A DNA stretch of 64,000 nucleotides from Nocardiopsis trehalosi NBRC 14201 (GTDB lineage Bacteria; Actinomycetota; Actinomycetes; Streptosporangiales; Streptosporangiaceae): the NCBI RefSeq assembly GCF_001552555.1, contig NZ_BCRK01000010.1:1-64000 (forward strand). Reading direction: 5' to 3'. The notes beneath the pieces are model-generated. The model was given only the letters and a program-made list of their open reading frames with translations. It did not search any database and was not told the DNA's origin. Each line of letters starts with the position of its first letter. Positions within the stretch are counted from its first letter, which is position 1. Positions 6,296 through 52,367 of this stretch are shown here, one piece after another. Made by a program: the position numbers and the translations under genes.

Positions 6296-6694
6296 CTAGG
6301 GCGTGATCGCCGCGGCCTGCGCCCGGGCGCGGGCCATGCCGTCCCCCAGCGGCAGGAACACGGTGGAGTAGGGGACCCGGGCCTCGACCGACACGGTCTG
6401 CCGGGTGGCGGTGACGGTGCCGGAGGCTCCGGCCTCGGCCAGGTACGCCTGGGCCTCCCGTTCCGCGGCGCGGGCGTCCAGGACGAGTTTGCTGTCGCCG
6501 GTGGTGACCAGCGCCGCCATGTCGACCTGCTGCGCACCCAGGCGGGCCGCTTCCTGGGCGAGCGCCATAGCCCGGGTCCTGTCGATGAGCATGGTGCCGC
6601 CGTCGGCGACCAGCCCGAGGCAGGTGAGAACGGCGGTGGCGAGGACGAGCACGAAGGCCGTGACCTGACCGCCGTCGTGCGTTCCGGATCTCAC
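6296..6694 (-). CDS. TadG/TadE-like pseudopilin or secretion protein
   Basis: This 132-aa protein has one N-terminal hydrophobic segment immediately after a short basic/polar start (GGQVTAFVLVLATAVLTCLG). A helical region rich in Ala follows (AQEAARLGAQQVD), as in the Rv3654/TadG-like minor pilins of actinobacteria. The GTG start overlaps the preceding stop as GTGA, which implies translational coupling. It is probably an inner-membrane or pilus-associated component of the Tad system. Confidence 0.75.
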   Translation of the reverse strand: MRSGTHDGGQVTAFVLVLATAVLTCLGLVADGGTMLIDRTRAMALAQEAARLGAQQVDMAALVTTGDSKLVLDARAAEREAQAYLAEAGASGTVTATRQTVSVEARVPYSTVFLPLGDGMARARAQAAAITP

Positions 6695-7128
6695 GGCGTG
6701 TGCTCCTCGCTCTTGTAGGTGTCGATCGGTGAGGTGGCGCGCGCCGTGATGTCGGTGCTGCCCGGCAGGCCGAGCAGCGCGAGGTCGGCCAGCGCGACGG
6801 TGCAGGTGACCTCCGCCGCCGTCCAGGCTCCACGTCGCAGTCCGGCGGTCTCCAGCCGCAACCGGTGGTCGGCGCAGGACAACCCTCGCTGTTCCAGTGC
6901 CGCCTGCGCCGCGGCGGAGGCGAAACCGCGCGCCCGGGTGTCGTCGTCCGCGATCGAGGCCGTTCGAGCGGCGTTGTGCGCGGCCGACTCCACGGCCATG
7001 CGCGCGGCGACGTAGCGTCCCGCCAGAACCATGACCAGGGCGGCGGCGATCAGAACGGGCGCCGCCATCATCAGCTCGACCGGTGCGCTCCCGGACTCGG
7101 CGTCGGCGGATGGGCGCCGGCGCCTCAC
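6691..7128 (-). CDS. TadE-like minor pilin
   Basis: This 145-aa protein begins with a basic leader (RRRRPSADAESGSAPVELMM) and runs directly into a hydrophobic helix, the TadE pattern of G-x-x-x-V-E preceding the membrane segment. The region after the helix is Ala-rich, with two cysteines (SCADH, EVTCTV) that could pair outside the membrane. The GTG start overlaps the upstream gene as GTGA. Pseudopilins of this family are needed for Flp pilus assembly. Confidence 0.8.
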   Translation of the reverse strand: MRRRRPSADAESGSAPVELMMAAPVLIAAALVMVLAGRYVAARMAVESAAHNAARTASIADDDTRARGFASAAAQAALEQRGLSCADHRLRLETAGLRRGAWTAAEVTCTVALADLALLGLPGSTDITARATSPIDTYKSEEHTP

Positions 7129-7505
7129 GGTCCGGGCTCCCGGCGTTCGACGGGGCCGCTCTGGTGGGCGCTGACGGATGGCTTCCAGCCGGGGACCAGG
7201 CTGAGGGTGGTGGCCCGCACGTGAACGTCGGTACGGGCCTCCCCCCGTTCGACGGTGACCCGTGGGTCGTCCAGGAGGCGTCCGCCGAGGTGGTCGAGGC
7301 TGCGCCGGGCGGCCGCGTGCCCTTGTTTGGCCGTGGCCCCATGGGCGCGGGCCGCGGCCAGGGCGTGGTCGGCCACACTCTGGGCGCGGGCGTGCGCATG
7401 GGTCCACAATCCGATCTGGAGGACGGTGAGGATCATGGCGAAGGCCAGCGGAAGGCTGAGCACCAGCTCGACGCTTCCGCGTTCGCCGGCCCGCCCTCGC
7501 GTCAC
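7125..7505 (-). CDS. TadE-like minor pilin
   Basis: This 126-aa protein has the TadE signature ERGSVELVLSLP leading into a single membrane helix, then a 95-aa soluble part. The start codon is GTG, overlapping the end of the Flp pilin gene as GTGA; longer frames extending upstream are shadows. It is the first of three consecutive TadE/G-like genes following the pilin. Confidence 0.8.
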   Translation of the reverse strand: MTRGRAGERGSVELVLSLPLAFAMILTVLQIGLWTHAHARAQSVADHALAAARAHGATAKQGHAAARRSLDHLGGRLLDDPRVTVERGEARTDVHVRATTLSLVPGWKPSVSAHQSGPVERREPGP

Positions 7506-7690
7506 TTGGCCAGGCCCAGATCGATCGATTCGGCGGCACCGGTGAAGGTGTCCATGAGGACGGCCCCGACCACGGTGGCGATGCCCACCACGATGGTGAT
7601 GCCGATGATGAACTCGGTGGTGTGGGAACCGCGGTCGTCGCGACGGGAAACCAGGGCCAGATACGGAAGCAGTGCGTTGAGGACACGCAT
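7502..7690 (-). CDS. flp: Flp/Tad major pilin (prepilin)
   Basis: This 62-aa protein, MRVLNALLPY..., has a prepilin-like site RG|SHTTEF. Cleavage after Gly would leave Glu at +5 and an aromatic at +6, followed by the hydrophobic helix IIGITIVVGIATVVGAVLM. The start is set by GAAGGAG 7 bases before the ATG. Size and motif fit actinobacterial Flp pilins. It lies between tadC and the tadE genes. The expected prepilin peptidase (TadV/CpaA) gene is not in the window. Confidence 0.85.
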   Translation of the reverse strand: MRVLNALLPYLALVSRRDDRGSHTTEFIIGITIVVGIATVVGAVLMDTFTGAAESIDLGLAK

Positions 7691-7735
7691 CGAGGACTCC
7701 TTCGGTCGGTGGAGTACTGGGGACGGGAACACGGG

Positions 7736-8620
7736 TCAGAAGCCGCTGACGATGTGGATGAGCGCCGGGTACCCGATGAGCAGCAGGAAGCCGAGGACGA
7801 GGACCATGACCGGCAGGGACATGCGCTCGGTGGCCGCCTGGCAGGCCGCGTCGGCGGCCGCGATGTCGCGGGTGCGCAGCGCTGCGGCCTTGGCGGCGAC
7901 CGAGGCGCGGACACGCGCCCCATCGGTGCCGGCGAGTTGAAGGGAGGCGGCGAACTCGGCCAGCTCCGGCACGCCGGTGCGGTGGGCGAGGTCCCCGAGG
8001 GCCTGCCAGGGCGATTGCCGGTGCATCGCCGCTGCGTGCAGCGCGAGCCGCACCCGTGCCGGCGCCCATCCTTCTCCGTAGGAGGCCGCCTGGGTCAGCG
8101 CTCCGGAGACCCCCGCTCCGCCGGCGAGCGCGATGACGACCACGTCGGCGAAGACGGAGGTCGCCGCACGAAGCTCGGCCCGCCGCCGGCGGGCGTGCTC
8201 GATGACCGCGATGTCGGGCGCGGTCCAGCAGGCGACCGCGATCCCCGCCGCGACGACCAGCAGAGTGGGCAAGGGAACCGGCAGCGCCAGCGCACCGACA
8301 ACGGTGGCGAGCACAAAGGGAACGGCTACGGCGGCCACCGCTGCGCTGGCCTTCTCCGCCAGGTAGTCGTCGGATCCGTGGTCGCTGAGGGCGAGGTCGC
8401 GGCGGATGCGGCGCGTGGGCAGGCCGACGGCCGCCAGGAACCCGGCGCCAGCACGCCCATAGCGGCGAGCCCACCCGCCGGTGTTCTCCCCCGTGGACTC
8501 GACGGCCGCCGACGGGACCGCCAGCAGCTCGGCGAGACGCGGCCTGCGCAGGCTGTAGGCCAGCAACCACACGCCCAGCCCTGTACCGGCACCGGTCAGC
8601 GCTGCCGTGAACACTGTCAT
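7736..8620 (-). CDS. tadC: Tad inner-membrane assembly protein TadC
   Basis: This 294-aa polytopic protein has a type II/IV secretion F-domain (GspF-like). An N-terminal membrane helix is followed by paired central helices near residues 95-130 and a C-terminal helix (LPVMVLVLGFLLLIGYP). The cytoplasmic F-domain contains the helix pair around GAGVSGALTQAAS. The ATG overlaps the tadB stop as ATGA. TadB and TadC form the membrane platform on which the ATPase acts to extrude Flp pili. Confidence 0.85.
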   Translation of the reverse strand: MTVFTAALTGAGTGLGVWLLAYSLRRPRLAELLAVPSAAVESTGENTGGWARRYGRAGAGFLAAVGLPTRRIRRDLALSDHGSDDYLAEKASAAVAAVAVPFVLATVVGALALPVPLPTLLVVAAGIAVACWTAPDIAVIEHARRRRAELRAATSVFADVVVIALAGGAGVSGALTQAASYGEGWAPARVRLALHAAAMHRQSPWQALGDLAHRTGVPELAEFAASLQLAGTDGARVRASVAAKAAALRTRDIAAADAACQAATERMSLPVMVLVLGFLLLIGYPALIHIVSGF

Positions 8621-9477
8621 GCCGGGCCTCCGGCCGACGGCCGCAGGAACCTTGCCCCCTGGACGGGGCGGGCCAGCCGCATCAGCCATACCACCGCCGC
8701 CGCCCAGATCGCCCCCACCCCGGCGAGCACGAACTGCCCGGCCAGGGTGTCGAAGGGGGTGAGGTAACCGCGGTTCAGGCCCACCATTCCGACCAGCATG
8801 AGCGCCGTCATCGCGATGATGATGCGCACCGAGGAACGCACGCGCGCCCGTCCGGCCGAGGTGCGCACGAGCATGGTGGCGCGATCGCGGGAGGACTCGG
8901 CGAGCCGGCTCAGCAGCGCGCTGAGATCGGCCGCGTGGCGCCCGTCGGCCGTGGACAGCGCGACGGCGACCAAGTCGGCCGTCGGGTTGTCGACCCGCTG
9001 CGCGAAGACGGCCATCGCCTGATGCACGTCCAACCCCGAGCGCAGCTGCCACGCCAGGTGGGCGACGTCGTCTCGGATCGCCGCCGGGGCGATGTCGGCG
9101 GTGGCGGCGATCGCGCTCTGCAGCCCGGACGCTCCGGAGATCATGTCGCGGAGCTGTTCGGTCCAGGCCGCGACGGCCTCCACCCGGCCGGCTTCGTCGG
9201 CCATCGCGCGGTCCGGGCCCAGGACCTCGGGCAGCCACCACAGCGCTGCGGCACCCAACAGCCCGGCCACCGGCCAGCCGGTGACCGCCCCGGCGCAGAG
9301 CCCGGCCGTCGCCGCGCAGCCCAGCCGCACCGCCACCCCGCGGCCCGCCGGGACCGAAGACACCATGCGCCGCAGCGGTTGCAGTGGTCCTCCGATGGCC
9401 AGGGCGCGGGCGAAGGCGAACACGCCCGCTCCGACGAGGGCGCCGGCCGAGGCCGTCGCCACCAGTTCCGTCTCCAT
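8617..9477 (-). CDS. tadB: Tad inner-membrane assembly protein TadB
   Basis: This 286-aa GspF-type platform protein has hydrophobic helices at the N-terminus (ATASAGALVGAGVFAFARAL), near residues 55-85 and at the C-terminus. A helical F-domain between them contains the segment MISGASGLQSAIAATADIAP. The start codon sits in a TGATG overlap with the ATPase gene. The usual TadA-TadB-TadC gene order supports the assignment. Confidence 0.85.
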   Translation of the reverse strand: METELVATASAGALVGAGVFAFARALAIGGPLQPLRRMVSSVPAGRGVAVRLGCAATAGLCAGAVTGWPVAGLLGAAALWWLPEVLGPDRAMADEAGRVEAVAAWTEQLRDMISGASGLQSAIAATADIAPAAIRDDVAHLAWQLRSGLDVHQAMAVFAQRVDNPTADLVAVALSTADGRHAADLSALLSRLAESSRDRATMLVRTSAGRARVRSSVRIIIAMTALMLVGMVGLNRGYLTPFDTLAGQFVLAGVGAIWAAAVVWLMRLARPVQGARFLRPSAGGPA

Positions 9478-10856
9478 CAGCTCCGCCCTCGCATTCGGGG
9501 CGGCTGTGCGATGGCGTCGGTGAAGTCGAAACCGTGGGCGGACAGCCGTTCCGCCAGCTCCGGGCTGGGCGGCACCCGCAGCTCCCCCTCGAAGCCGCCG
9601 CCGTCGCGCCGGTAGATCTCGTTGGAGACGACCTGCGGGCCTTCGGCCCCCACCACCTCGCGGATGCTGGCGACGTGGCGGCGGCCACGCGGCGGGGCCG
9701 CGATGTGGACCACCAGGTGCACCGCCGAGGCGATGAGGAGGTTGGTCGCCTCCAGGCTCAGGCGTTCCGGGCTCTGGGCGGTGTAGGCGGCGATCTTGGT
9801 GAAGACCTGCGCCGAGCTGCTCGCGTGGATGGTGGCCATCGACCCGTCGGTCCCCATGCTCATGGCGTTCAGCAGCGCGATCGTCTCCGGTCCGCGCGTC
9901 TCGCCGACGATCACCCGATCCGGTGACATCCGCAGTGCGTGGCGGACCAGGTCGGCCAGGGTGATCTCGCCGACTCCTTCGAGGTTGGCCGGACGGCCTT
10001 GGAGCACCACGCAGTCGGGGTGCGCCTGTTCGTCGCGGTCGAGGTTGAGTTCGAGGCTGTCCTCGATCGTCACGATGCGCTCGTGCGGGTCGATGGTGTC
10101 GGCCAGTGCCCGCAGCAGGGTGGTCTTGCCCGCGCCGGTGGCTCCGGCGATCACGATGTTCGCCCGTGCGGCGACCGACGCCGCGAGCAGCTTGTTCACC
10201 GTGGCGTCGACCATGCCGGCCTGGCGCAGATCGGCGAGAGTGAGCCTGTTCTCGGGGTGGCGGCGGATGGCGATCGAGACTCGGCGGGCCACGCTCATCA
10301 CCGCCGACAGGCGGGCGCCACCGGGCAGCTCCATGCTGAGCAGGGGCGCGGAGGAGTCGAAGCGCCGCTCCCCCGAAGCCGAATCCGCGGCGATCCGGCG
10401 CACCAGGGCGATCAGGTCCTCGTCGCGGCCGGCGATCGGCCGGCGGCGTTCGCGCCGCCCGCCGCCGAAGTCCAGGAACACCCGGTCCCCGGTGATGTGG
10501 ATGTTCTGCACCCCGGGTTCGGCCAGCAGCCCTTCGAGGGGACCCAGGCCGCAGACGCGTGCCAGCACCGCCGAGCGCAGCCACGCCTCCTGCGCGTCGG
10601 TGAGGACACCGCGGTTGGCGGCCAAGGCGCGGTGGGCGTAGGCGTCCAGGACCTGGCCGAGCACCCCGTCGACGCGGTTCCGGTATGCCTCCCCGGTGAC
10701 CGCCGGCCGAGCGAGCTCTTCGTCCTCAGCAGCGGCGCGGACGAGCCGCGCCGTCACCTCGGCGGTGACCTCGCGCACCAGGGGCTCGAACCTGGCGGCC
10801 GCGTCTCCCGCCTGCGCGACCGCGGGTGCCGTGGGCAGTACCTCCATCCGGGTCAC
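9477..10856 (-). CDS. tadA: Tad pilus assembly/secretion ATPase TadA (CpaF family)
   Basis: This 459-aa secretion ATPase of the VirB11/CpaF family has the Walker A motif GATGAGKTT at about residues 238-246. It also has the Asp box (IVTIEDSLELNL), Walker B (DRVIVGETRGPE) and the His box (MATIHASS). Length and motif order are normal for CpaF. It powers pilin polymerisation at the cytoplasmic face of the TadB/TadC platform. The GTG start overlaps the preceding TadZ-like gene as GTGA. Confidence 0.9.
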   Translation of the reverse strand: MTRMEVLPTAPAVAQAGDAAARFEPLVREVTAEVTARLVRAAAEDEELARPAVTGEAYRNRVDGVLGQVLDAYAHRALAANRGVLTDAQEAWLRSAVLARVCGLGPLEGLLAEPGVQNIHITGDRVFLDFGGGRRERRRPIAGRDEDLIALVRRIAADSASGERRFDSSAPLLSMELPGGARLSAVMSVARRVSIAIRRHPENRLTLADLRQAGMVDATVNKLLAASVAARANIVIAGATGAGKTTLLRALADTIDPHERIVTIEDSLELNLDRDEQAHPDCVVLQGRPANLEGVGEITLADLVRHALRMSPDRVIVGETRGPETIALLNAMSMGTDGSMATIHASSSAQVFTKIAAYTAQSPERLSLEATNLLIASAVHLVVHIAAPPRGRRHVASIREVVGAEGPQVVSNEIYRRDGGGFEGELRVPPSPELAERLSAHGFDFTDAIAQPPRMRGRS

Positions 10857-11710
10857 GCCACCGCCCCCAACGCGTCCGGCCCGTGGGTGCGGGAAGGCAC
10901 TGCGGCGGACGCCGGGTGGGAAACGGCGCTCGGGGCCATGTCATCGAGGTGTTCGGCGAGCGCCCGCGCCGCGCGCATCAGCGGATGGCCGCCGATCGTC
11001 TCCGGGTCGCGCCGATACCGCAGCCAGGCGCCGGCCCGCCCCCACCACGAAGCCCACCGCGCCTCCTCGCCACGGATCACCGCGGCGCCGCCGGGGTCAT
11101 CGGGGATGCGCGCCCAGATGGGCGGCGCGGTGGCCTCGGCGAACTCGTCGTCGCTGAATCGGCGCCCTCTCACCGCCAACCCCACGCTGCAGCCGCGCTG
11201 CTCCAGAGCGGTGAAGACGGCGGCACACTCCACGACGCGTTTCACCTGGGCCACGTCGTCGCCGCAGAGCACCACGACGACCGCGTCCGCCTGCATCAGC
11301 AGCCGGGCGCCCGCACTACCGGGCAGAACGCGTCCGACGTCGACGACCGTGAGCGGTCCCCGCGCCAGGCATCCGCGGCGCTCCGCCAGCAGGCGCACCG
11401 CACCCGTCACTGCATGCGGGGCGGACGGTGCCGTGATCACATGCAGTCCACCGGACACCTCCACCGCATGGCGCAGCAGCGGGTTGTCCCCGCCGTCGGC
11501 GTCCGCAGCCGTTCGGCGGCTCGCCGCGGCCAGTGACAGCAGCCCCCGCTCCGCACGCGTGTTGTGCCAGACCGCGAAGTCGCCACCGGAGGCGTCGGCT
11601 TCAACGAGGACGGGCACGGTGAGCGGGGCCGCCGGCCAGCACGCCGTCAGGGCGGCGGCCAGCGTCGACACCCCCGGCGCACCCGATAGGGAACACACCG
11701 CGACGATCAT
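10853..11710 (-). CDS. TadZ/CpaE-like ParA-superfamily protein
   Basis: This 285-aa protein starts MIVAVCSLSGAPGVSTLAAA, a deviant Walker A in which the usual K-G-G-x-G-K-[ST] has lost its lysines. A conserved Asp block (VLVEADASGGDFAVW) and TVVDVGRVLP resemble the switch regions of MinD/ParA proteins. Position directly before tadA fits TadZ/CpaE, which localises the pilus machine. The missing P-loop lysines suggest weak or absent ATPase activity, as reported for several TadZ proteins. Confidence 0.75.
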   Translation of the reverse strand: MIVAVCSLSGAPGVSTLAAALTACWPAAPLTVPVLVEADASGGDFAVWHNTRAERGLLSLAAASRRTAADADGGDNPLLRHAVEVSGGLHVITAPSAPHAVTGAVRLLAERRGCLARGPLTVVDVGRVLPGSAGARLLMQADAVVVVLCGDDVAQVKRVVECAAVFTALEQRGCSVGLAVRGRRFSDDEFAEATAPPIWARIPDDPGGAAVIRGEEARWASWWGRAGAWLRYRRDPETIGGHPLMRAARALAEHLDDMAPSAVSHPASAAVPSRTHGPDALGAVA

Positions 11711-12434
11711 GCTTCCTCCTGCTCATGGCCATGGACCAGCACCAGCCGCACGTTCTCGGACCCCGCTGCGGCGACGAGCGGCGCGTCCGCACGCGCCATA
11801 CCGAGTTCGACGGTCGTCTCGGCCGCTCCCTGCTCGACCGGCCTGCGCACCGTGTGCACCGTCGCCATCACCGGCACGCCGGGGATGGCCGCGGTGGGCT
11901 CGTCGCCTTCCTCGTCGTCCCGTGGCGCGGACAACGAACCGGCTTCGGTGATGACCACGCCCACCGCCGATCCCGCCGCGAGGGCGCTCGGCACCGTCGC
12001 CTCGGGAAGGGCGACCGCCACCACCGCCCGTCCCCGCTCCGGCCACTCGTCGGCACCCGCCAGCGCCGAACGCGGCAGGGGCGTCCCCGCACGCAGGGGT
12101 ATGGCGACCCTGCGTCCCAGGACGTCCGCCGACTCCGCCTCGACCAGTTCCAGCCCGTCCGTCCCGTGGAGGTCGGCCGCCCGCAGGTCCTCACTCGTCA
12201 GCACGTGCCCCGCGTCGACGTCGCGCGCCACGACGACGATCGGCACCGCCTCTTCCGGCTCGCCAACCCCACTGACGAAACCGCTCCCAACGTCACGAGT
12301 ACGGCCCCTGCTGCGGTCCACCTCCATTGACGGCGTCGGTGGGGAGGTGCATTCCGTCCGTCCCTACTCTTCCGACTTGATTTGTCTGTATTTGCGGCCA
12401 CGCCTTCCCCCGCCTGACGAAATGGGGCTCTCAC
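11707..12434 (-). pseudogene. SAF-domain (CpaB/RcpC-like) protein with an apparent -1 frameshift
   Basis: Two overlapping frames together make one SAF protein. Frame 1 starts at GTG 12434 (GTGA overlap with the upstream gene). It encodes a basic N-terminus and a membrane helix (WTAAGAVLVTLGAVSSVGLA), then loses homology. Frame 2 carries the SAF domain (VPIVVVARDVDAGHVLTSED) to the stop at 11707. The switch lies near 12245-12262, and a net -1 shift (for example one missing base) would join them. Within frame 2 an ATG at 12325 could start a 206-aa protein, but its first ~25 residues are the shadow of the helix. It is either a real lesion, a sequence error or, less likely, recoding. Confidence 0.7.
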
Positions 12435-42878: not shown

Positions 42879-43247
42879 GTGTCCCGAGCCCTGCCCACCG
42901 AACTCAAGGCCGCCCGCGTCCTGCTGTTCCTCACCTCGGCACTGGCGTTCTTCCTCTTCTACGTGCTCATCGTCGCCGACGCCGACCAGCCCACCCTCTA
43001 CCTCGGCTTCTTCGCCTACATCGGGCAGGGCACCGCCGCCCTCGCCCTCGGCCTGCTGCTGCCCCACGGCGGGTCCCGCGTCCTGTACGCCCTGTGGGCC
43101 TACACCGCGGTGATCCTGGCCTGGAGCCTGCTCACCCTGATCCGCGGCGACCTCAACGGCCTCACCCAGGCACTACTGCCCGGCATCGTCCTGGCCCTCT
43201 CCCTGCGCCCGGCCGCCCGCACCCACCTGCGCACCCCCACGACCTGA
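42879..43247 (+). CDS. Small four-helix membrane protein, partner of pilin-type HINT toxin 1
   Basis: This 122-aa protein has four hydrophobic segments (for example VLLFLTSALAFFLFYVLIV and LLPGIVLALSL). GAGGAG lies upstream of the GTG start. It is a paralogue of the 118-aa gene at 49135-49491: both end in SLLTL/ALLTL..GD....TQ.LLP..VL.L.LRP.AR. Each stands directly upstream of a prepilin-HINT toxin. Possible roles are an accessory for membrane insertion or export of the toxin, or an envelope-located protector; this is inference from the duplicated arrangement. Confidence 0.7.
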   Translation: MSRALPTELKAARVLLFLTSALAFFLFYVLIVADADQPTLYLGFFAYIGQGTAALALGLLLPHGGSRVLYALWAYTAVILAWSLLTLIRGDLNGLTQALLPGIVLALSLRPAARTHLRTPTT

Positions 43248-43312: not shown

Positions 43313-45181
43313 GTGCTGCGCAGCATCCACGACCCTGACCGCGGCGCCGGCTACGTCGAGTACGGCGCCGTCATCCTGCTCGTGGCCGCCATCGCCGCCA
43401 CCGTCATCGGCTCCGGCATCACCGGCCGCATCCAACAGATGATCACCGGCGCCGTCGACTCCGTCGGTCAACCCCAGGCCGACGACCGCGACAGACCGGA
43501 CAGCACCGAAGCGCCGGACGACCCCGCCGACCCACCCAGCGCGCCCGACGCCCCGGGGATCACGCCCGCCTTCTCCCAGGACACCCGCCCGTCCTTCGCC
43601 CCGTTGGGCCTGGGCAGCCTGCTGCCCGGCGTCGACGGCTCCCGCCTCACCTACGCCTACTCCACCGGTGACCTGCGCGAGGACGTCACCGGACTGTTCG
43701 ACGACGCGCTCGCCTCCCAGCACCGCGCGTTCGGCGAAGGCCTGGAGATCGGCCACGAGACGATCACCGGGCCGATCAACCTCGCCGAAGACCTCATCGA
43801 CGACCCTCTGGGGACGGTGCAGCGCGGTGTGGACGGCGCCGCTGAGCGCTTCACCGGCATGGGCACCGCCGCCTGGTCGACATTCCAGGAGTCCACGGAC
43901 CTCGCCTTCCAGGGCTACCAAGACGGCCAGCTGCTCGGCGGCATCTTCGACAGCGGCCTGCACCTGGGCGGGTGGGGGCTGCGCCAGGGGCTCGAGCTGG
44001 GGTTGGGTGACGAGGCCGTCGAGCACTTCGCCAACGGCGAGATCGAGCAGGGCGCCGCACGGACGGGTGTCACGGTCGCGTCCTGGCTCATCGCCGGGCC
44101 GGCCGGAAGGATCGGCCTGAGCGGTCTGCGGCTGCTACCGGAATGGACCGGCTCCGCACGCGGCCCGGAACCCGGCAGCAGCCCTCTAGCGAACGGCCCC
44201 GACCGCGACCCGCCGGGCGAGGACACCTCGACCACCGCAGGAGAGGACGAGGACACCGACCGCGGCAGCGAACCCTGCGCCCCCAGCAACAGCTTCATCC
44301 CGGGCACCGCGGTCCTGCTGGCCGACGGCACCACCGCCCCCATCGAGGACGTCGCCGTAGGCGACGACGTGCTGGCCTTCGACCCCCTCACCGGGGAGGA
44401 AGGACCGCGCGAGGTCACCGACACCATCACCGGCGACGGCCACAAGCCCCTGGTCACCCTCACCATCGACACCGGCGACGGCACCGACACCCTCACCGCC
44501 ACCGACGAACACCCCTTCTGGGTCCCCGAACAGGCCCAGTGGGTCGACGCCATCGACCTCACCCCCGGCACCTGGCTGCGCACCTCCACCGGCACCTGGA
44601 CCCAGATCACCGCCGTCGACGTCCACGAGACCCCCGACCAGCGCGTCCACAACCTCACCATCGCCGATCTCCACACCTACTACGTAGGGGTCGACGGCGT
44701 CGGTTGGCTCGTCCACAACGACAACGGTCGTGAGAGCAGCTGTCCTGATTGGCTCCGCGACCGCCTGGAGGCGGGGAATAACTTCAACCGGGAGAGGGAA
44801 GCCCACTACACCAGACTCGGAGGCGCCAACGAGGTCCACGTCGGCCCCCGAACCTCAGGCAACCAGTACCAGCGTGTCGATTCCTACATACCTGGTAGGG
44901 AGATCGTCTCTCGTAAGTACACTCAACTGTCAGAGATCCAAGAATCCACCGCCTTCAACTACCTGCGGGAACTCGCAAGAGACTACGGGCCGGGCACCCC
45001 GATCGCCGACACGCCGACCAACCGGCGGGATCTTCCGGAGGACCTGATCGGCGAAGAGCTTGATGGCCAGATGTACCTGGAGGTTCCGGTTCAGAACAGC
45101 ACCGTTCCGGACTCGGTCATCAGCGAAGCCAACCGTTTGGGCATCATCATCCGAGACGAGAACGGCCACATATGGAGATGA
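43313..45181 (+). CDS. Polymorphic toxin 1: prepilin-like N-terminus, HINT domain, nuclease-like tip
   Basis: The protein has 622 aa. Residues 1-45 match a Flp prepilin: RG|AGYVEYGAVILLVAAIA, with Glu at +5 and Tyr at +6 of the predicted cleavage. Residues ~46-321 are an acidic, helical linker. A HINT (hedgehog/intein) domain spans ~322-469, from C-x9-G (CAPSNSFIPGTAVLLADGTT) through TDEHPFWVPE to WLVHN, the self-cleavage signature. The tip (470-622) has NQYQRVDSYIPGREIVSRKY, with D523, E530 and K535 resembling restriction-endonuclease-fold actinobacterial toxins. It starts at GTG. The tip is visibly more A/T-rich than the rest, as expected for swapped tips. Confidence 0.85.
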   Translation: MLRSIHDPDRGAGYVEYGAVILLVAAIAATVIGSGITGRIQQMITGAVDSVGQPQADDRDRPDSTEAPDDPADPPSAPDAPGITPAFSQDTRPSFAPLGLGSLLPGVDGSRLTYAYSTGDLREDVTGLFDDALASQHRAFGEGLEIGHETITGPINLAEDLIDDPLGTVQRGVDGAAERFTGMGTAAWSTFQESTDLAFQGYQDGQLLGGIFDSGLHLGGWGLRQGLELGLGDEAVEHFANGEIEQGAARTGVTVASWLIAGPAGRIGLSGLRLLPEWTGSARGPEPGSSPLANGPDRDPPGEDTSTTAGEDEDTDRGSEPCAPSNSFIPGTAVLLADGTTAPIEDVAVGDDVLAFDPLTGEEGPREVTDTITGDGHKPLVTLTIDTGDGTDTLTATDEHPFWVPEQAQWVDAIDLTPGTWLRTSTGTWTQITAVDVHETPDQRVHNLTIADLHTYYVGVDGVGWLVHNDNGRESSCPDWLRDRLEAGNNFNREREAHYTRLGGANEVHVGPRTSGNQYQRVDSYIPGREIVSRKYTQLSEIQESTAFNYLRELARDYGPGTPIADTPTNRRDLPEDLIGEELDGQMYLEVPVQNSTVPDSVISEANRLGIIIRDENGHIWR

Positions 45182-45225
45182 TGCGGGAGCGGTGGCCAGC
45201 ACGGACACGGAAGTGAGATGCGATT

Positions 45226-45741
45226 ATGGAAACATCTGAAGTCACTTACTGCTATCGGTGGAACCCGATGGACGCGAAGCCGGGAAGCCCCATTACAGTG
45301 GATGAGGCGCGCGATCGGGATGCGGTCGGCGAGGAATACACCGCTGTCGTACCCCGATCCGGTCACCCCTACCCGACCCTGGTAACGATCGTATGGAAGA
45401 ACGACTACTGCAGCACCATATTCTTGGACGAATATGGAAGACAAGCAGTGAAGTACGTCTTCAAGAAGATGGGGGACCAGCTTTTTCTTAGCCGCATCCT
45501 CATGCATACATACCCCAACAAGAAACGCGGACTCGTCGTATCCGATGCAGTACGCATGGAGGATGTCAAAATGCGCCCCGATGGATATTCCAAGCGCGTA
45601 ATCACGGACGACGAGAAACAGGAAAGAATCACAGACGAATACTCGGATGTTCCGACAGACGCCAACTGGGAGCCTATACCGAAATTCGGCGAATGGGACT
45701 CTATCGCCCGATTCGAACGGTCCGGCCGCGCGAACGCGTAA
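45226..45741 (+). CDS. Probable immunity protein for toxin 1
   Basis: The product has 171 aa, is soluble and starts 44 bases after the toxin stop. It has an aromatic, strand-rich N-terminus (TYCYRWNPMDAKPGSP; PTLVTIVWKNDYCSTIF). It is more A/T-rich than its surroundings, matching the toxin tip. I do not recognise the family; immunity is inferred from position directly after the tip. Confidence 0.65.
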   Translation: METSEVTYCYRWNPMDAKPGSPITVDEARDRDAVGEEYTAVVPRSGHPYPTLVTIVWKNDYCSTIFLDEYGRQAVKYVFKKMGDQLFLSRILMHTYPNKKRGLVVSDAVRMEDVKMRPDGYSKRVITDDEKQERITDEYSDVPTDANWEPIPKFGEWDSIARFERSGRANA

Positions 45742-46217
45742 TCTACTGGAAGCACCAGCACTATAGCGAAGCCAGGATCAAAGGGAATTTTCCTATCTCG
45801 CCCGACCACGCCTGGCCGTGCCCCTGCTGTGGGTACCTCGCGCTTCCTTATGGACCGGGTCAGTACGAGATTTGTCCTGTGTGCGGGTGGGAGGACGACC
45901 GCCTTCAGCTCAGGTGGCCATCGATGACCGGCGGCGCCAACAAGCCCAGCCTGATCGAGGCCCAGAAGAACTTCGCCGACTTCGGGGCGAGCACCAGGGC
46001 ACGTCTCACCCGAGGCGCACCGAGCCGTGCCTCCGACCATCCCCGCGAACCCTTCTGGCGGATGATCGACCTGCGGGTGGATGATTTCGAGCAGCCCGGG
46101 GAGCACGAAGCACCCCTGCCGGCGGACTTGGCGGTCCTCTACTGGTGGCGACCGACGTTCTGGCGTCTCGACCGACGAAACAGTCAGGAGAACGCGCAGC
46201 GGAAGCCCACGGGGTGA
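45693..46217 (+). CDS. Cysteine-rich CPCC family protein (immunity-associated)
   Basis: This 174-aa protein has the CPCC family core WPCPCCGYLALPYGPGQYEI, then CPVCGWEDDRLQLRWP and GGANKPSLIEAQKNFADFGA. This zinc-ribbon-like family is a known companion of actinobacterial polymorphic toxins and nearby immunity genes. The ATG at 45693 overlaps the preceding gene by 49 bases in another frame; no better start is seen. It is the last gene before the tRNA remnant. Confidence 0.8.
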   Translation: MGLYRPIRTVRPRERVIYWKHQHYSEARIKGNFPISPDHAWPCPCCGYLALPYGPGQYEICPVCGWEDDRLQLRWPSMTGGANKPSLIEAQKNFADFGASTRARLTRGAPSRASDHPREPFWRMIDLRVDDFEQPGEHEAPLPADLAVLYWWRPTFWRLDRRNSQENAQRKPTG

Positions 46218-46538
46218 AGTACGGCCATCCACCGTGAGCTGCGGTGAATTCCGGGAGGGGGTCCTTGGGCTTCCGCGGGAGCTGCGCCGCTGGGACGGCC
46301 GGAAGCGCAGAACGGCCGTGGGGCCCGAGGTCGGCCACGAGTCCGCCGGATCGGGGGCCAGCCGCCGCGTGATACCGCCTGCGGGCCGTGACGTGCGCCC
46401 TGTGTGCTCCGATTGTGCTCGGTGGTCTTGGTCCTGGGCGGGGCGGTTCGGCATCGGGTGGCAGCGGCTGGCGGTGCGTGGGGGATACGGCGGCAGGAAA
46501 CGGCACATCCCACGCCGGGGCGGCACTTCTCCAGGGCA

Positions 46539-46583
46539 CTTTTAATCCGCGGGTTCAGGGTTCGATCCCCTGGGGGGCCACCA
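46539..46583 (+). tRNA. 3' half of a tRNA-Lys(TTT) gene, probable attachment-site remnant
   Basis: From the anticodon loop (CTTTTAA, 46539-46545) onward every tRNA part is present. There is a 3' anticodon stem (TCCGC), a 5-nt variable loop, a T arm (CAGGG-TTCGATC-CCCTG, 46556-46572), a 3' acceptor strand GGGGGCC, a discriminator A and an encoded CCA. Upstream there is no D arm and no matching 5' acceptor (GGCCCCC), and the 5' anticodon stem pairs only at 3 of 5 positions. Such fragments are left when elements integrate into tRNA genes. The polarity places the integrated element to the left. Confidence 0.8.
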
Positions 46584-47069
46584 GGCAAGACACCCCTTCC
46601 GGTGGTGGTCATCCGGGGGCGCCGGTTGCAGTTCTAGTTGCAGTTCCTGCCCCAGGGCGGTCACGCTCACAGGGCCGCCCGTCCGTTCGGCGGCCCGCGC
46701 CTCCCGCCGTGCGCGACTCGCGGGAGTATGACCTCGACCAGGAGGAATACACCTCCGGCGGTCCCTGTACGGGTGCCACCCGTGCTACTGAAGCGGCCCG
46801 ACGCCGAGGGCTCCTCATACAGCGCCGAAGGCGGTGCGAGAGGGCGTGTCCGCGGGTGCCCACGCAGGTGGCGTGCCGTGCCGAAGAGTGCGGCTGCTCG
46901 CGACCCAGGTGTCGAGCGGGAGCGACGCACCGGAGGACGATCCGTCGTCACAAGGGTGACGGTCGGTTTGTGCCCGGACAGGCGTCTCCCGCGGCCGGGC
47001 CCGACGCGCCTGTCCGGTGTCAGCTCGGCCGGGGTGAGGAACCGGGGGCTGAGGGACGACGGAGCGGGG
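46584..47069. other. Gene-free interval with a tandem 10-mer
   Basis: No supported gene is seen. Just after the tRNA remnant there is a tandem GTTGCAGTTC (46625-46634 and 46637-46646, separated by TA), which could be an arm-type recombinase site. The remainder is the region downstream of the immunity gene of module 2. Confidence 0.45.
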
Positions 47070-47411
47070 TCATCCGGAGAACGCGTCCGGGCGGCCGTCG
47101 AGGAACTCGTCCAGGAGGGTGAAGAACGTGGACACGGCACGCGCGTCGTCGTCGCCCGAGAGGGCGTGCCAGTCCACCCCTGACCAGGGTTCGAACCCGG
47201 CTTCACGGAGGACGAGCACCGGCCAGACCAGGTTCCACCCGCCCTGGTCGGACCGGCTCGCGATCCATTCGCTGAAGCCTTCGAGAAGCTGCTTCCCGCT
47301 CCCCAGATCGAGGCCGTTGAAGAACGCCACGTACTCCCCGAACGACCCGTCGAGCCCGCAGGAAGAGGGCCGGAGCCTGGCGTTTCTGACGATCTGCCCG
47401 GTCGGCGACAT
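47070..47411 (-). CDS. Probable immunity protein for toxin 2
   Basis: This 113-aa protein starts 10 bases after the toxin stop, with GGAGGGACG before the ATG. It is an acidic, helical soluble protein (YVAFFNGLDLGSGKQLLEGF; FFTLLDEFLDGRP). No family is recognised. Position immediately downstream of the papain-like toxin tip is the basis for calling it immunity. Confidence 0.7.
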   Translation of the reverse strand: MSPTGQIVRNARLRPSSCGLDGSFGEYVAFFNGLDLGSGKQLLEGFSEWIASRSDQGGWNLVWPVLVLREAGFEPWSGVDWHALSGDDDARAVSTFFTLLDEFLDGRPDAFSG

Positions 47412-47421
47412 CGTCCCTCCC

Positions 47422-49101
47422 TCACTCCCCCGGGGTGAACGTGTAGCCGCCACTGTCCGGATTCGGCGCCAGTGAACCACGGGTCGTCACCGTCGTCTCG
47501 CCCGCGTCCTCCCACTGCGACATGTACGTCTCCAGGGGTTCTCCCGTCCTGTCGGTCCAGGCGTCGTAGACCCGCCCGTCCTTGATCACGGCGTAGTGGA
47601 CGTTCCACTGCACCTCCTGATCACGGTACTTCCAGAGCTGGCGCGCGTAGGGCGGAGGGGCGATCCGCAGCACCTCGCCGCCGCCCAGGCGGTCGATGAT
47701 CTCCAGCGCGCAGGCCTCGCACCCGCCCCTGTCGCCGGGGATTTCCGAGGGGTCCCTGGGCTCCCACGAGTCGCCCAGGTCGCCGCATTCCGGCGGCGTG
47801 TTGTGCACCAGCAGCGAGGTGTCCCCCGCCGACACGTAGTAGGTGTGCAGGTCGGCGACGGTGAGGTTGTGGACGCGTTGTTCGGCGACCCGCTCGGTGT
47901 CGACGGCGGTGGCCTGGGTCCAGGTGCCGGCCGAGGTGCGCAGCCAGGTGCCCGGCTCCAGGTCGGCGGCCTCGACCCACGCGGCCTGTTCCGGGACCCA
48001 GAAGGGGTGGGCGTCGGTGGCGGTGATCGTGTCGGCGCCGCCCTGGCCGTCGTCGACGGTGAGGGTGACCAGCGTCTTGGCGCCGCTGCCGGTGATGAGG
48101 TCGGTGACCTCGCGGGGCCCCTCCTCCCCGGTCAGCGGGTCGAACGCGAGGACCTCGTCGCCGACGGCGACGTCCTCGATGGGCAGGGTGGTGCCGTCGG
48201 CGAGCAGGACGGGGGTGCCGGGCACGAAGCTGGACGGGCGCGTGCACGACGGGCTGTCCTGGTCCTCCTGGTCCTGGTCGTCGGCCTGCTGCTGGTCGTC
48301 GCCGTCCTCGTCATCGTTGTCGCTGCCGCGGTCGCCGTTGTCGCCGTCGGCGATGTCGCCCAGGCGGTCGAGCTTCTTGCCCCACCCGAAGTAGGGGATG
48401 AGCGCGACCGCGTTCTCGGCCACGCCCTGGCCGACGGCCTCCAGGTAGTTGCCGTTGCTCCAGTTCTCCTGGGTCTCCTCACTGAACAGGGCGTCGGTGA
48501 CCCACCCGAGGGGGTCCTCGGTCACCTGGTCCCAGGTGCCGGTCACCCCGTCGACCAGCCCGTTCCAGGTGTCGGAGGCCCACTGGCCCGGGTCGTCCCA
48601 CAGGCGCTGGGCGCCGTCGACCAGGCCGTCCCAGGCGTCGACCACGCCGTCCCAGGTGTCGGTGGCGGCGTTCCAGACGCCGGTGCCGAAGTCGGCGAAG
48701 CCGCCGCCGATGTCGCTGAGCCCGTCGCCCACCGAGGACCAGAACCCGCCGCCGTCGTCACCGCCGTCGTCGCCGCCGTCGTCGTCGGCGGGCGGGTCCT
48801 GGCCGTCGTCCTCGTCGGAGACCTGCGTGATCTCGGGGCCGGCCGGGGCGTCCTCGCCCGGTTCCCGCCCGTCGTCGCCTTCCTCGCCGCTGTCGCCCTC
48901 CGGCCCGTCGTCGCCCTCCCCGTCACCTTCCCCGACCTCGCCGCTGCCGACGGCGTCGACGGCGGAGGCGATGAGCGAGGACACGCGGCCGGGCAGGCCG
49001 CCGGCGATGACCGCGGCGGTGATGGCGGCGACGAGCAGGATGACGGTGGCGTACTCGGTGAAGCCGGCGCCGCGTTCGGGGTCGTGGATGCGTCGGAGCA
49101 T
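47422..49101 (-). CDS. Polymorphic toxin 2: prepilin-like N-terminus, HINT domain, papain-like tip
   Basis: The protein has 559 aa. It begins with a Flp-like prepilin segment, RG|AGFTEYATVILLVAAITA, with Glu at +5 and Tyr at +6. A long Asp/Gly-rich acidic linker and Trp-rich repeats (WDGVVDAWDGLVDG) follow. The HINT domain lies at ~286-434 (CTRPSSFVPGTPVLLADGTT ... TDAHPFWVPE ... LLVHN). The tip (435-559) has RGGCEACALEII (C461, C464), QWNVHYAVI (H502) and RVYDAW (D513), the Cys-His-Asp order of papain-fold toxins such as deamidases. The HINT DNA is closely similar to toxin 1, in opposite orientation. Its immunity gene follows. Confidence 0.85.
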   Translation of the reverse strand: MLRRIHDPERGAGFTEYATVILLVAAITAAVIAGGLPGRVSSLIASAVDAVGSGEVGEGDGEGDDGPEGDSGEEGDDGREPGEDAPAGPEITQVSDEDDGQDPPADDDGGDDGGDDGGGFWSSVGDGLSDIGGGFADFGTGVWNAATDTWDGVVDAWDGLVDGAQRLWDDPGQWASDTWNGLVDGVTGTWDQVTEDPLGWVTDALFSEETQENWSNGNYLEAVGQGVAENAVALIPYFGWGKKLDRLGDIADGDNGDRGSDNDDEDGDDQQQADDQDQEDQDSPSCTRPSSFVPGTPVLLADGTTLPIEDVAVGDEVLAFDPLTGEEGPREVTDLITGSGAKTLVTLTVDDGQGGADTITATDAHPFWVPEQAAWVEAADLEPGTWLRTSAGTWTQATAVDTERVAEQRVHNLTVADLHTYYVSAGDTSLLVHNTPPECGDLGDSWEPRDPSEIPGDRGGCEACALEIIDRLGGGEVLRIAPPPYARQLWKYRDQEVQWNVHYAVIKDGRVYDAWTDRTGEPLETYMSQWEDAGETTVTTRGSLAPNPDSGGYTFTPGE

Positions 49102-49134: not shown

Positions 49135-49491
49135 TCAGCGGAGGAAGAAGGCGCGCGCCGTGGGTCGCAGGAGCAGGACGAGGATCACCGCGGGCAGGAT
49201 GAGCTGGGTCCAGCGCCCGTCGCCGCCGAGGGTCAGCAGGGCGTAGAGGCAGAGCAGGGCCTCCACGGCGAGGATCGACCAGAACACCACGCGGCCGTTG
49301 CGGCGGATGAACACCGCGAGCAGGATCTGGGCCACCCCGGGCAGCGACGCCATGGCGTTGTAGCCGAGTTCGTAGGCGGAGATTCCGGTGAGCATGAGCA
49401 TGGACAGCGCGATCAGCAGGGTCAGCCCACCGGAGAGGTAGAGCAGTGCGCGCAGCCAGCGCACGGACGCGGGCAGGGGACGATCGGGCAT
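49135..49491 (-). CDS. Small four-helix membrane protein, partner of toxin 2
   Basis: The product has 118 aa, with four hydrophobic segments (LLYLSGGLTLLIALSMLML; VVFWSILAVEALLCLYALL) and a basic end. It is a paralogue of the 122-aa protein at 42879-43247, sharing the layout and the LLTL...TQ.ILPA.ILVLLLRP.AR ending. It stands upstream of toxin 2 in the same direction, 33 bases before it, mirroring module 1. Confidence 0.7.
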   Translation of the reverse strand: MPDRPLPASVRWLRALLYLSGGLTLLIALSMLMLTGISAYELGYNAMASLPGVAQILLAVFIRRNGRVVFWSILAVEALLCLYALLTLGGDGRWTQLILPAVILVLLLRPTARAFFLR

Positions 49492-51386: not shown

Positions 51387-51704
51387 ATGCTGATGTCACC
51401 GAAGGACGACGCCGCCGAAGCAGCCGTGCAGCTCTTCGGTGATCCGCTGCGGGCGCGCATCGTCCGGCTGCTGGCCACGGAGCAGATGTGCACCTGCCAT
51501 CTGATCGAGGAGACGGGCGCTCGGCAGCCCACCATCAGCCACCACCTGAGGATCCTCCGCGAGGCCGGCCTGGTCGAGACCGAGCCCCGCGGACGGTTCA
51601 CCTACTACCGCCTGCGCCCGGACGCCGTCTCCGGACTGGCCGACGCCCTGCGCGACCTCGCCGCCGGCGCCGAGCAGGCACGCGGGAGGTACCGCCCGTG
51701 CTGA
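51387..51704 (+). CDS. arsR: ArsR/SmtB-family arsenic-responsive repressor
   Basis: This 105-aa winged-helix protein has a cysteine pair MCTCHL at the start of the sensing helix and the recognition helix RQPTISHHLRILREAGLVE. A C-terminal Cys follows. A short dyad ATCAACGCATGCTGAT overlaps the start region and could be its operator. Alternative starts are the ATGs at 51387 and 51393. It lies upstream of arsC (convergent) and acr3. Confidence 0.8.
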   Translation: MLMSPKDDAAEAAVQLFGDPLRARIVRLLATEQMCTCHLIEETGARQPTISHHLRILREAGLVETEPRGRFTYYRLRPDAVSGLADALRDLAAGAEQARGRYRPC

Positions 51705-51793
51705 ACTCCGCGGACCCCGGGTCCCCGCTCTCGGGTCCGCCGGGCGTGCGCGGCGCGGGCGGCACGGGGTGAGCGGGCCCGCTCGGGAACGCC

Positions 51794-52207
51794 TCAGTTC
51801 CGGGCGGGCACGCCGAGTTCGGCGAGGAGCCCTTCGACGCGGCGGCGGATGTCGTCGCGGATGGGACGGACGGCGTCGATGCCCTGGCCGGCAGGGTCGT
51901 CGAGCCTCCAGTCGAGGTAGCGCTTGCCGGGGAAGATGGGGCAGGCGTCGCCGCAGCCCATGGTGATGACCACGTCACTGGCCTCGACGGCGTCGGTGGT
52001 GAGGACCTTGGGCCGCTCGGCGGCGATGTCGATGCCCAGTTCGGCCATGGCCTGGACCGCGACCGGGTTGACGGCGTCGGCGGGCTCGGATCCGGCGGAG
52101 CGGACCTCGACGCGGTCGCCGCCGAGGTGGGCGAGCAGGCCGGCCGCCATCTGCGACCGCCCGGCGTTGTGGACACAGACGAACAGCACACTCGGTTTGC
52201 CCGGCAC
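51794..52207 (-). CDS. arsC: Arsenate reductase, low-molecular-weight phosphatase fold
   Basis: This 137-aa protein has the P-loop CVHNAGRS (C11-x5-R17) of thioredoxin/mycothiol-linked arsenate reductases. It also has VEVRSAGSEPADAVNP and a second cysteine pair in MGCGDACPIF. It is transcribed away from acr3 across the operator at 52.29 kb. GTG start. It reduces arsenate to arsenite for export by Acr3. Confidence 0.88.
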   Translation of the reverse strand: MPGKPSVLFVCVHNAGRSQMAAGLLAHLGGDRVEVRSAGSEPADAVNPVAVQAMAELGIDIAAERPKVLTTDAVEASDVVITMGCGDACPIFPGKRYLDWRLDDPAGQGIDAVRPIRDDIRRRVEGLLAELGVPARN

Positions 52208-52290
52208 GGGACGGCCTCTCTCTGCGACCTCGGATGGAGCGCTGCGGCGCGGCCGCGCGGGCGGCGCCGCATCGAAACCTATCAGCCATG

Positions 52291-52302
52291 ATTGATATCA
52301 AT
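52291..52302. promoter_or_regulatory. Probable ArsR operator between arsC and acr3
   Basis: A perfect 12-bp palindrome, ATTGATATCAAT, sits in the A/T-rich centre of the divergent control region, followed by ATCAACGTCGAT. ATCAA/TTGAT half sites are typical of ArsR operators. Confidence 0.7.
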
Positions 52303-52367
52303 CAACGTCGATGTATGGTGTGCGAGGTCGTCACCCCGCACACCTGGACACATCTGGAGGAACTTCC

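What the first reader, a model, noticed from the sequence alone, without database searches (positions are those of the whole stretch)
43313..49101. HINT polymorphic toxins fused to Flp-type prepilin N-termini
Both large toxins begin with the same cleavage signature as the Flp pilin at 7.5 kb (RG, four residues, E, then Y/F; then a hydrophobic helix): RG|AGYVEY, RG|AGFTEY and RG|SHTTEF. A HINT domain and a variable toxin tip follow. Polymorphic toxins are usually exported by Sec/type VII/T6SS-type routes. A prepilin leader suggests processing by a prepilin peptidase and display or release via a Tad-type machine, with HINT releasing the tip.
Basis: partly seen in the sequence, partly recalled or inferred. 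Interest (0 to 1): 0.88.

Follow-up and report, generated by a model that had tools for sequence, protein, structure and literature searches.

The report
Bacterial toxins built onto pilus subunits
Two toxin genes in this actinomycete start with a complete subunit of a surface pilus, as do many toxins and enzymes in its relatives, which suggests that a pilus-building machine is used to display or deliver toxins to neighbouring cells.

Summary
T1 (43313-45181 +) and T2 (49101-47422 -) are HINT polymorphic toxins whose first ~52 residues form a Flp-type (type IVc) prepilin domain. A profile of 18 short Tad pilins from relatives finds T1 (E 7e-18), T2 (2e-13) and nothing else at E<=10 among 664 window frames, not even the window's own Flp at 7.5 kb. 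The matching pilus is a second Tad system ('Tad-II', working name) on another contig of this genome. Sixteen long open frames here match the domain: six with HINT, others including an ADP-ribosyltransferase and a calpain-type protease. Of 150 family genomes, own included, 34 have strong domain matches; all 34 are among the 44 with Tad-II, none among the other 106. Some genes lie in arrays beside Tad-II; others do not. T2's tip, with a related immunity gene, also rides on Rhs-like, ALF-repeat and Sec-type carriers, so the pilin domain occupies the trafficking slot. A four-TM gene precedes one subclass (28 of 32). Prepilin cleavage, Tad export and killing are inferred. One printed phrase names Flp pilins on ARC toxins (PMC12605009).

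The parts
43313..45181 (+). T1: Flp-pilin-domain HINT polymorphic toxin, 622 aa
43313..43468 (+). T1 leader MLRSIHDPDRG and Flp pilin domain (residues 1-52; predicted cleavage after G11; predicted helices 14-33 and 36-51)
   Evidence: (low confidence); cleavage inferred from the motif
44276..44722 (+). T1 HINT domain; C322, T397, H400, H468, N469 invariant in the 12-sequence A7 alignment
44723..45178 (+). T1 tip, about 150 aa, no Pfam family; one weak plasmid match (35% identity over 54%)
45226..45741 (+). hypothetical protein directly downstream of T1, candidate immunity protein (position only)
45693..46217 (+). Cys_rich_CPCC protein (PF14206, E 4e-27), second candidate immunity protein of T1 (position only)
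42879..43247 (+). 4-TM companion protein upstream of T1 (122 aa)
47422..49101 (-). T2: Flp-pilin-domain HINT polymorphic toxin, 559 aa
48943..49101 (-). T2 leader MLRRIHDPERG and Flp pilin domain (residues 1-53; predicted helices 14-33 and 36-52)
   Evidence: cleavage inferred from the motif
47800..48246 (-). T2 HINT domain (C286, T362, H365, H433, N434 invariant in the 19-sequence A6 alignment); best fold matches are BIL and intein structures
47425..47799 (-). T2 tip (residues 435-559), also found on Rhs-like, ALF-repeat and Sec-type carriers
47070..47411 (-). T2 immunity protein (MSPTGQ...); a homologue (55% identity) follows the same tip on a Streptomyces plasmid
49135..49491 (-). 4-TM companion protein upstream of T2 (118 aa), homologous to the one upstream of T1
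7502..7732 (-). Flp pilin of the window's own Tad locus (weak DUF4244 match, under the cut-off); shares only the motif with T1 and T2
6296..12327 (-). Window's own Tad locus (Tad-I, working name): SAF/CpaB-like, a 284-aa frame without a Pfam match, TadA ATPase (T2SSE 5e-38), two T2SSF-like frames (one just under the cut-off), Flp, TadE-like, TadE/G-like

Best explanation
T1 and T2 are polymorphic toxins whose trafficking domain is a Flp-type type IVc pilin domain related to the major pilin of a Tad subtype (Tad-II) encoded elsewhere in the genome. Proposed working: the protein is inserted in the membrane as a prepilin; the prepilin peptidase (G000:C183) cuts after the invariant G; the Tad-II ATPase and platform extract it into, or through, the pilus as a modular minor pilin, so that linker, HINT and tip are carried across the wall; HINT self-cleavage at its C-terminal HN frees the tip at or in a neighbouring cell; the adjacent immunity gene protects the producer. 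Shown here: the pilin domain and its homology to Tad-II pilins, conserved G-1 and Y+6 and mostly E+5, conserved HINT residues, sharing of the T2 tip and immunity gene between carriers, co-occurrence and partial linkage with Tad-II. Inferred: cleavage, Tad-dependent export, pilus incorporation, HINT release, killing.
For: Profile from 18 Tad-II short pilins (no toxins, none from this genome) finds T1 7e-18, T2 2e-13, and only these among 664 window frames. 6 of 7 PT-HINT proteins of the genome carry the domain. 16 of the 17 matches with E<1e-7 in the genome lie in frames of 374-1343 aa. HINT-only retrieval from named genomes: 18 of 79 loci have the domain, all 18 with G, E, Y at -1, +5, +6, all in order Streptosporangiales. 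34 of 34 genomes with strong matches (E<1e-7) have the Tad-II TadA; 0 of 106 without it have one. On seven large contigs 15 of 42 listed long-frame matches lie within 50 kb of TadA-II, 0.7 expected if uniform. Arrays beside Tad-II loci in several relatives. Pfam on 96 relatives' proteins: 46 PT-HINT, 9 calpain, deaminases, CdiA-type RNase A, Cytotoxic, Tox-REase-3, several Ntox. T2 tip and immunity on other carriers. Prepilin peptidase present.
Against: No experiment exists. In one genome (G071) 0 of 13 listed long-frame genes on the main contig lie within 50 kb of Tad-II. The genomes with both are related, so the co-occurrence test is not phylogenetically independent. E+5 is replaced (N, Q, S, T or G) in a minority, for example in G037, G050 and G065. 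At E<=0.01, 15 genomes without Tad-II also have weak matches. PF01478 is in 142 of 150 genomes and so says little. My script called a short Flp pilin in only 16 of 27 fetched loci with TadA-II. The Tad-II contig of this genome ends in the gene after TadC, so its own major pilin was not seen. AlphaFold confidence is low for the N-terminus, the linker and the tips. No Gram-positive Tad pilus is known to me to carry 500-residue cargo (recalled).
Confidence: 0.62

Rival explanations
1. The N-terminus is a class III (prepilin-type) signal that is inserted and perhaps cut by the peptidase, but only anchors the toxin in the membrane or wall; HINT or other proteolysis releases the tip, and the Tad machine is not needed for delivery.
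For: Many genes lie far from the Tad locus (27 of 42 listed; 0 of 13 near it in G071). The peptidase is nearly universal in the family. A single TM-like segment follows the motif in T1 and T2. E+5 is lost in some relatives. Archaea use class III signals for non-pilus proteins (recalled).
Against: Conservation and homology reach over the whole ~45-residue pilin, including the stretch predicted as a second helix, not just the cleavage signal. Strong matches occur only with one Tad subtype although the peptidase is almost everywhere. Arrays sit beside Tad-II in several relatives.
Confidence: 0.25
2. The N-terminus is an ordinary Sec signal anchor that resembles a prepilin by chance.
For: Short charged leader followed by a hydrophobic helix, as in any signal anchor.
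Against: Invariant G and Y and near-invariant E across 112 aligned long proteins, although the pattern used to place starts favours G; a profile of true Tad pilins finds T1 and T2; all 25 motif-bearing genes of 308 are of pilin-type families.
Confidence: 0.03
3. These are structural or adhesive modular pilins of Tad-II whose C-terminal domains act on self, wall or surface rather than as injected toxins.
For: Long Flp-domain proteins without recognised toxin domains, and SGNH-hydrolase-like ones (by eye), exist outside the family, several in stretches that also hold a TadA-II-type gene. Precedent in modular pilins with binding modules (PMC8179133, passages read).
Against: T1/T2-type proteins have HINT, known toxin families and, for T2, a shared immunity gene.
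Confidence: 0.1

Closest known systems
Polymorphic toxin systems (Zhang et al. 2012, PMC3482391; only searched for five pilus words)
   Same: Trafficking domain, HINT processing domain, variable tip, adjacent immunity gene, tips shared between carriers (family features recalled)
   Different: The N-terminal trafficking domain here is a Flp pilin. The paper has 0 whole-word uses of pilin, Flp, Tad, pilus or pili in the part held (300,000 of 357,715 characters)
ARC toxin survey (PMC12605009; section 8 and passages read)
   Same: One sentence lists Flp pilins among elements fused to ARC toxin domains
   Different: Its main text has 0 uses of 'tad' and 0 of 'tight adherence'; no link to a pilus machine, linkage test, distribution test or companion gene in what I read
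Kil system of Myxococcus: Tad pilus with variable minor-pilin tips that mediates contact killing (PMC12075869 and PMC8460266; passages read)
   Same: A Tad pilus used for killing; large minor pilins with variable C-terminal parts
   Different: The Kil tips are complexes of separate minor pilins likened to TadE/F/G; the earlier paper says the toxin remains to be discovered. Here toxins are fused to a Flp-type pilin in monoderm actinomycetes
Modular type IV pilins (PilB of Streptococcus sanguinis, PMC8179133; passages read)
   Same: A functional module grafted on a pilin module and presumed to be shown at the pilus tip
   Different: That survey used the IPR012902 signature, which is not the Flp signature (recalled); modules named in the passages are binding domains and peptidases, not polymorphic toxins

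Membership tests
Polymorphic toxin system | Variable C-terminal tip exchanged between carriers | tested here: met
   T2 tip on Rhs-like, ALF-repeat, Sec-type and other Flp-N carriers; T1 tip only one weak match
Polymorphic toxin system | Immunity gene directly downstream | tested here: met
   T2: homologous downstream gene on two other carriers (55% and 31% identity), similar-looking ones by eye in six more. T1: candidates by position only
Polymorphic toxin system | Processing domain (HINT) with its active-site residues | tested here: met
   PF07591 E 7e-18 and 2.5e-18; Cys, T-x-x-H and terminal HN invariant in the alignments; which residues are catalytic is recalled
Polymorphic toxin system | Toxic activity of the tip | not testable with these tools
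   needs expression
Flp-type (type IVc) pilin | G at -1, E at +5, Y or F at +6, then a hydrophobic helix | tested here: met
   T1, T2; G 84/84, E 78/84, Y 84/84 in long proteins (retrieved with a motif-bearing profile); 18/18 in HINT-only retrieval
Flp-type (type IVc) pilin | Homology over the whole pilin to Tad pilins encoded in a tad locus | tested here: met
   pilin-only profile, E 7e-18 and 2e-13
Flp-type (type IVc) pilin | Small size (Flp = low molecular weight) | tested here: not met
   559 and 622 aa; only the N-terminal domain is Flp-like, so these are pilin-domain proteins, not Flp pilins proper
Flp-type (type IVc) pilin | Cleavage by a prepilin peptidase | not testable with these tools
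   a peptidase gene is present
Tad (type IVc) pilus substrate | Genome has the matching Tad machine | tested here: met
   G000:C54 TadA-II, 86% identity to the array-linked one; RcpC, TadZ-like ATPase, TadE (just under cut-off), two T2SSF; major pilin not seen because the contig ends
Tad (type IVc) pilus substrate | Co-occurrence restricted to genomes with the machine | tested here: met
   34 of 44 against 0 of 106 at E<1e-7; 44 of 44 against 15 of 106 at E<=0.01; not phylogenetically independent, and some matches are the short pilins themselves
Tad (type IVc) pilus substrate | Polymerised in or exported by the pilus | not testable with these tools
   needs gene removal and pilus preparation
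Kil system | Kil gene clusters with tip complexes and needleless T3SS | not tested
   no kil genes were searched for

The most novel reading that the evidence does not exclude
Tad-II is a dedicated protein-delivery machine in monoderm actinomycetes. Its cargo proteins (HINT toxins, ADP-ribosyltransferase, calpain-type proteases, deaminases, nucleases) are covalently built as pilins and carried out on the pilus as interchangeable warheads, with a 4-TM partner dedicated to the LRRIHDP subclass. This would be a Tad-based contact-killing system whose toxins are known from sequence.
Probability: 0.5. Interest if true: 0.92.

Novelty: new variant of a known kind. Interest (0 to 1): 0.83.

Why it matters
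Tad pili have been shown to mediate contact killing in Myxococcus, but the toxin was reported as not yet found (PMC8460266, passage). Here toxins are fused to a Tad pilin, in a monoderm phylum, in organisms that include Thermobifida fusca and several Nocardiopsis species. If the route holds, it adds a trafficking mode to polymorphic toxins, gives a simple signature (Flp domain at the start of a long frame) for finding Tad cargo, and makes a direct genetic test possible. If only the anchor reading holds, it is still a class III signal used for toxins.

Tried and rejected
Rejected: chance motif; plain Sec anchor; the window's own Tad locus as the closest relative of the domain; prepilin peptidase as a discriminating marker (142 of 150 genomes).

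Led nowhere or weak: T1 tip has no Pfam match at E<=10, no PDB match better than E 0.6 and one weak plasmid match. T2 tip has no Pfam match, one PDB match at E 0.58, and a model of middling confidence. The AlphaFold model of T1 is poor (mean pLDDT 51.5); only the T2 model was compared with the PDB, and the 50 matches shown, as far as I can judge, are to the HINT/intein fold. NCBIfam added only weak intein matches. A script looking for the T2 tip by a hand-made pattern printed nothing and was replaced by tblastn. Literature: searches listed no paper that, by title or abstract start, describes Flp-pilin polymorphic toxins as a system (lists partly shown: 20 of 193, 15 of 18, 15 of 21, 10 of 18 and 10 of 31); one search found the one ARC phrase. 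A passage of PMC8416519 on archaeal pilins had no bearing. The library is open-access PMC only.

Rows dropped: 141 profile hits were reduced to 111 distinct (84 long, 27 short, some of the short cut by a locus end). Of 117 long proteins, five low-scoring or doubtful ones were left out of A3 (112), and this genome's 16 were then left out of A4 (96) for the size limit; 23 of the 117 are cut by a locus end. In one search, 2 of 117 were skipped for short upstream sequence, and HINT was judged there by a letter pattern, not by Pfam. In one search, L098 and L109 are cut at the contig start and their N-termini are unseen; many long frames run off the locus edge. G and Y invariance in A3 is partly favoured by the pattern used to place starts. 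The match lists are capped, so linkage counts use listed rows only.
Full report
Observation. T1 (43313-45181 +) and T2 (49101-47422 -) start MLR(S/R)IHDP(D/E)RG|AG(Y/F)(V/T)EY followed by a hydrophobic stretch, carry PT-HINT, and end in unrelated tips; BLAST aligns only the HINT region at high score. Each has one TM-like segment, directly after the motif. The motif with a following hydrophobic stretch occurs in 25 of 308 genes called in the window and 22 other loci (one counted twice), and on inspection all 25 are Flp- or TadE-type proteins.

The genome. A PT-HINT search finds 7 proteins; 6 have this N-terminus (RG|AGFTEY, ANMVEY, AGYVEY twice, SG|AFKAEY, RG|ASMTEY) and the 7th is an Rhs-like protein. 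A profile of the six N-termini (A1) finds 17 places with E<1e-7 in the genome, 16 of them in frames of 374-1343 aa. Of the ten without HINT, one is an ADP-ribosyltransferase exoenzyme (E 3e-20), one a calpain-family protease (1.5e-21), one has a weak GDPD match (0.04), and the rest have no clear family; one of the ten was scanned only as a fragment cut by the contig end.

It is a pilin domain of one Tad subtype. Relatives in two genomes of one genus carry arrays of such genes beside a Tad locus, and others do in part. The Tad-II locus of this genome is on contig C54 (TadA 86% identical to the array-linked one; RcpC, TadZ-like ATPase, TadE just under the cut-off, two T2SSF); the contig ends in the gene after TadC, so the major pilin is not seen. 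In the loci read the order is CpaB/RcpC, TadZ, TadE, TadA, TadB, TadC, what look like two-component genes, Flp pilin, TadG-like, OmpA-like. In 27 fetched loci with TadA-II my script called a short Flp pilin in 16, in 15 of them 4.7-5.05 kb from TadA and in one 2.75 kb; in the other 11 none was called (contig or stretch ends in some, the crude caller or true absence in the rest). I took 18 short Flp pilins from such loci, two of them from stretches whose TadA lies in the neighbouring stretch, with no toxin and none from this genome. Their profile finds T1 (E 7e-18) and T2 (2e-13), and among 664 six-frame stretches of the window only these two at E<=10; the window's own Flp is not found.

Retrieval that does not depend on the N-terminus. 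A HINT-only alignment (A2) against named genomes gave 79 loci (the tool kept the best 80 of 415). 18 have the Flp domain (A1 profile), 17 of them also with a profile masked at the motif (E<1e-3); all 18 have G-1, E+5, Y+6. They are in Nocardiopsis, Murinocardiopsis, Allosalinactinospora, Thermobifida fusca and Actinorugispora (Nocardiopsidaceae, Nocardiopsis not looked up) and, four of them, in Allonocardiopsis (Streptosporangiales incertae sedis). Of the other 61, 48 lie in frames of 1000 aa or more; L098 and L109 are cut at the contig start and cannot be judged.

Distribution. In the same 150 family genomes, own included, the array-type TadA (586 bits or more, next value 415) is in 44. Domain matches with best E<1e-7 are in 34, all within those 44, and in 0 of the other 106. 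At E<=0.01 the count is 59: all 44, plus 15 weak ones, 13 of which have another TadA type. By my count at least 26 of the 34 have a listed match in a frame of 230 aa or more (capped list); the rest may be short pilins or unlisted. Prepilin peptidase is in 142 of 150 and does not discriminate. Linkage: on seven large contigs (one length assumed) 15 of 42 listed long-frame matches lie within 50 kb of TadA-II against 0.7 expected, but G071 has 0 of 13. Tandem arrays and shared ancestry make these events non-independent.

Conservation. In 84 distinct long proteins of the loci then held, G-1 84, E+5 78, Y+6 84 (retrieved with a motif-bearing profile). In relatives such as G037, G050 and G065, E+5 is N, T, S or G, so E+5 is not absolute.

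Cargo. Of 96 long relatives, some cut by locus ends, 46 have PT-HINT, 9 calpain, 4 Abhydrolase_8, 4 Toxin-deaminase, 2 CdiA-CT RNase A, 2 XOO_2897 deaminase, and single ones Ntox28, Cytotoxic, Tox-REase-3, Ntox21, Ntox24 and Ntox50. Only one reached Flp_Fap at E<0.001, so the stock library mostly misses the N-terminus. Outside the family, the listed matches of a class-wide search of 296 genomes are mostly single ones in frames under 250 aa. Some long Flp-N proteins exist there too: a 440-510 aa family ending in [YF]LGAP...C and proteins that look SGNH-like, and TadA-II-type genes at 64-69% identity over more than 400 residues in five of the 14 stretches fetched. The pattern check flagged no HINT among the Flp-N genes it printed there; several long frames were not printed by that script.

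Tip and immunity. The T2 tip occurs in 5 Streptomyces plasmid records and 9 of 150 family genomes including this one: on Flp-N frames (G007, G023), a Rhs-like frame (G009), a Sec-signal-like HINT protein on a plasmid and an ALF-repeat protein. The next gene is related to the window's 47070-47411 protein in both plasmid cases compared (55% and 31% identity), and similar-looking genes follow in six genome loci (by eye). The Flp domain thus sits in the slot where other carriers have their export domain. T1's tip remains unidentified.

A companion gene. Directly upstream of T1 and of T2 lies a 4-TM protein of about 120 aa; the two are homologous (27% identity, E 3e-6). After removing duplicates a relative precedes 28 of 32 HINT toxins with the LRxIHDP leader, 0 of 9 with the RWVWRA leader, 2 of 8 other HINT ones and 4 of 66 non-HINT ones. 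I know of no name for it; it could be an insertion or release partner (inference).

Structure. AlphaFold gives helix 14-33 and helix 36-51/52 in both proteins with low to middling confidence, a long disordered linker, a helical region, HINT with high confidence in T2, and poor tips. T2's best PDB matches are bacterial intein-like and intein domains. The HINT residues named in the parts list are invariant in the alignments.

Mechanism. Shown: domain identity, motif conservation, conserved HINT residues, sharing of the T2 tip, co-occurrence and partial linkage. Inferred: cleavage after G11, extraction by Tad-II, display on or with the pilus, HINT release, uptake and killing. The main rival is a class III anchor without Tad; the full-length pilin homology and the Tad-subtype restriction speak against it, the unlinked genes and the variants without E+5 leave room for it.

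Prior art. The 2012 polymorphic toxin survey has no pilus words in the held text. One 2025 paper lists Flp pilins among elements fused to ARC domains. Kil papers show Tad-dependent killing with tip complexes and, in the earlier one, an unknown toxin. The PilB paper describes modular pilins. The listings of searches show no description of this system; subscription papers and preprints were not searched.

Noticed in passing
window 42879-43247 (+) and 49135-49491 (-): Homologous 4-TM proteins upstream of both toxins, tied to the LRRIHDP leader subclass (28 of 32) and not found before the RWVWRA subclass (0 of 9 HINT ones).
   Followed up: partly
L217, L220, L225, L230 and others outside the family; L050, L069, L077, L185 inside: A 440-510 aa Flp-N protein family ending in [YF]LGAP..R.F.E..C, in several stretches together with Tad genes; no Pfam family for the two of this genome that were scanned.
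   Followed up: partly
L218, L225, L227 (C-terminal ends): Flp-N proteins with an end that looks SGNH-hydrolase-like by eye (SFHPNAAGQRALA) in other actinomycete families.
   Followed up: no
L079 15108-15710 (+), L070 15311-15913 (-): 200-aa Flp-like protein at the end of the Tad-II locus; the L079 copy has a weak transglycosylase (SLT) match under the cut-off, perhaps a wall-opening enzyme for the pilus.
   Followed up: no
G050 (L033, L092): 43 domain matches in one genome, with variants such as RG|EGAVNY in which E+5 is replaced by N.
   Followed up: no
window 3653-6268 (-): Protein with OmpA and BTAD domains beside the window's Tad-I locus.
   Followed up: no
window 39728-42151 (+): 807-aa helicase-like protein resembling type III restriction subunits by eye, next to the toxin region.
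   Followed up: no
window 51387-53465: ArsR-, ArsC- and arsenite-permease-like genes by eye, an apparent arsenic resistance group.
   Followed up: no
L070 9286-9762 (+), L077 5244-5720 (+), L086 8266-8700 (+): Small lipoprotein-like proteins near Flp-N genes (by eye), possible immunity proteins.
   Followed up: no
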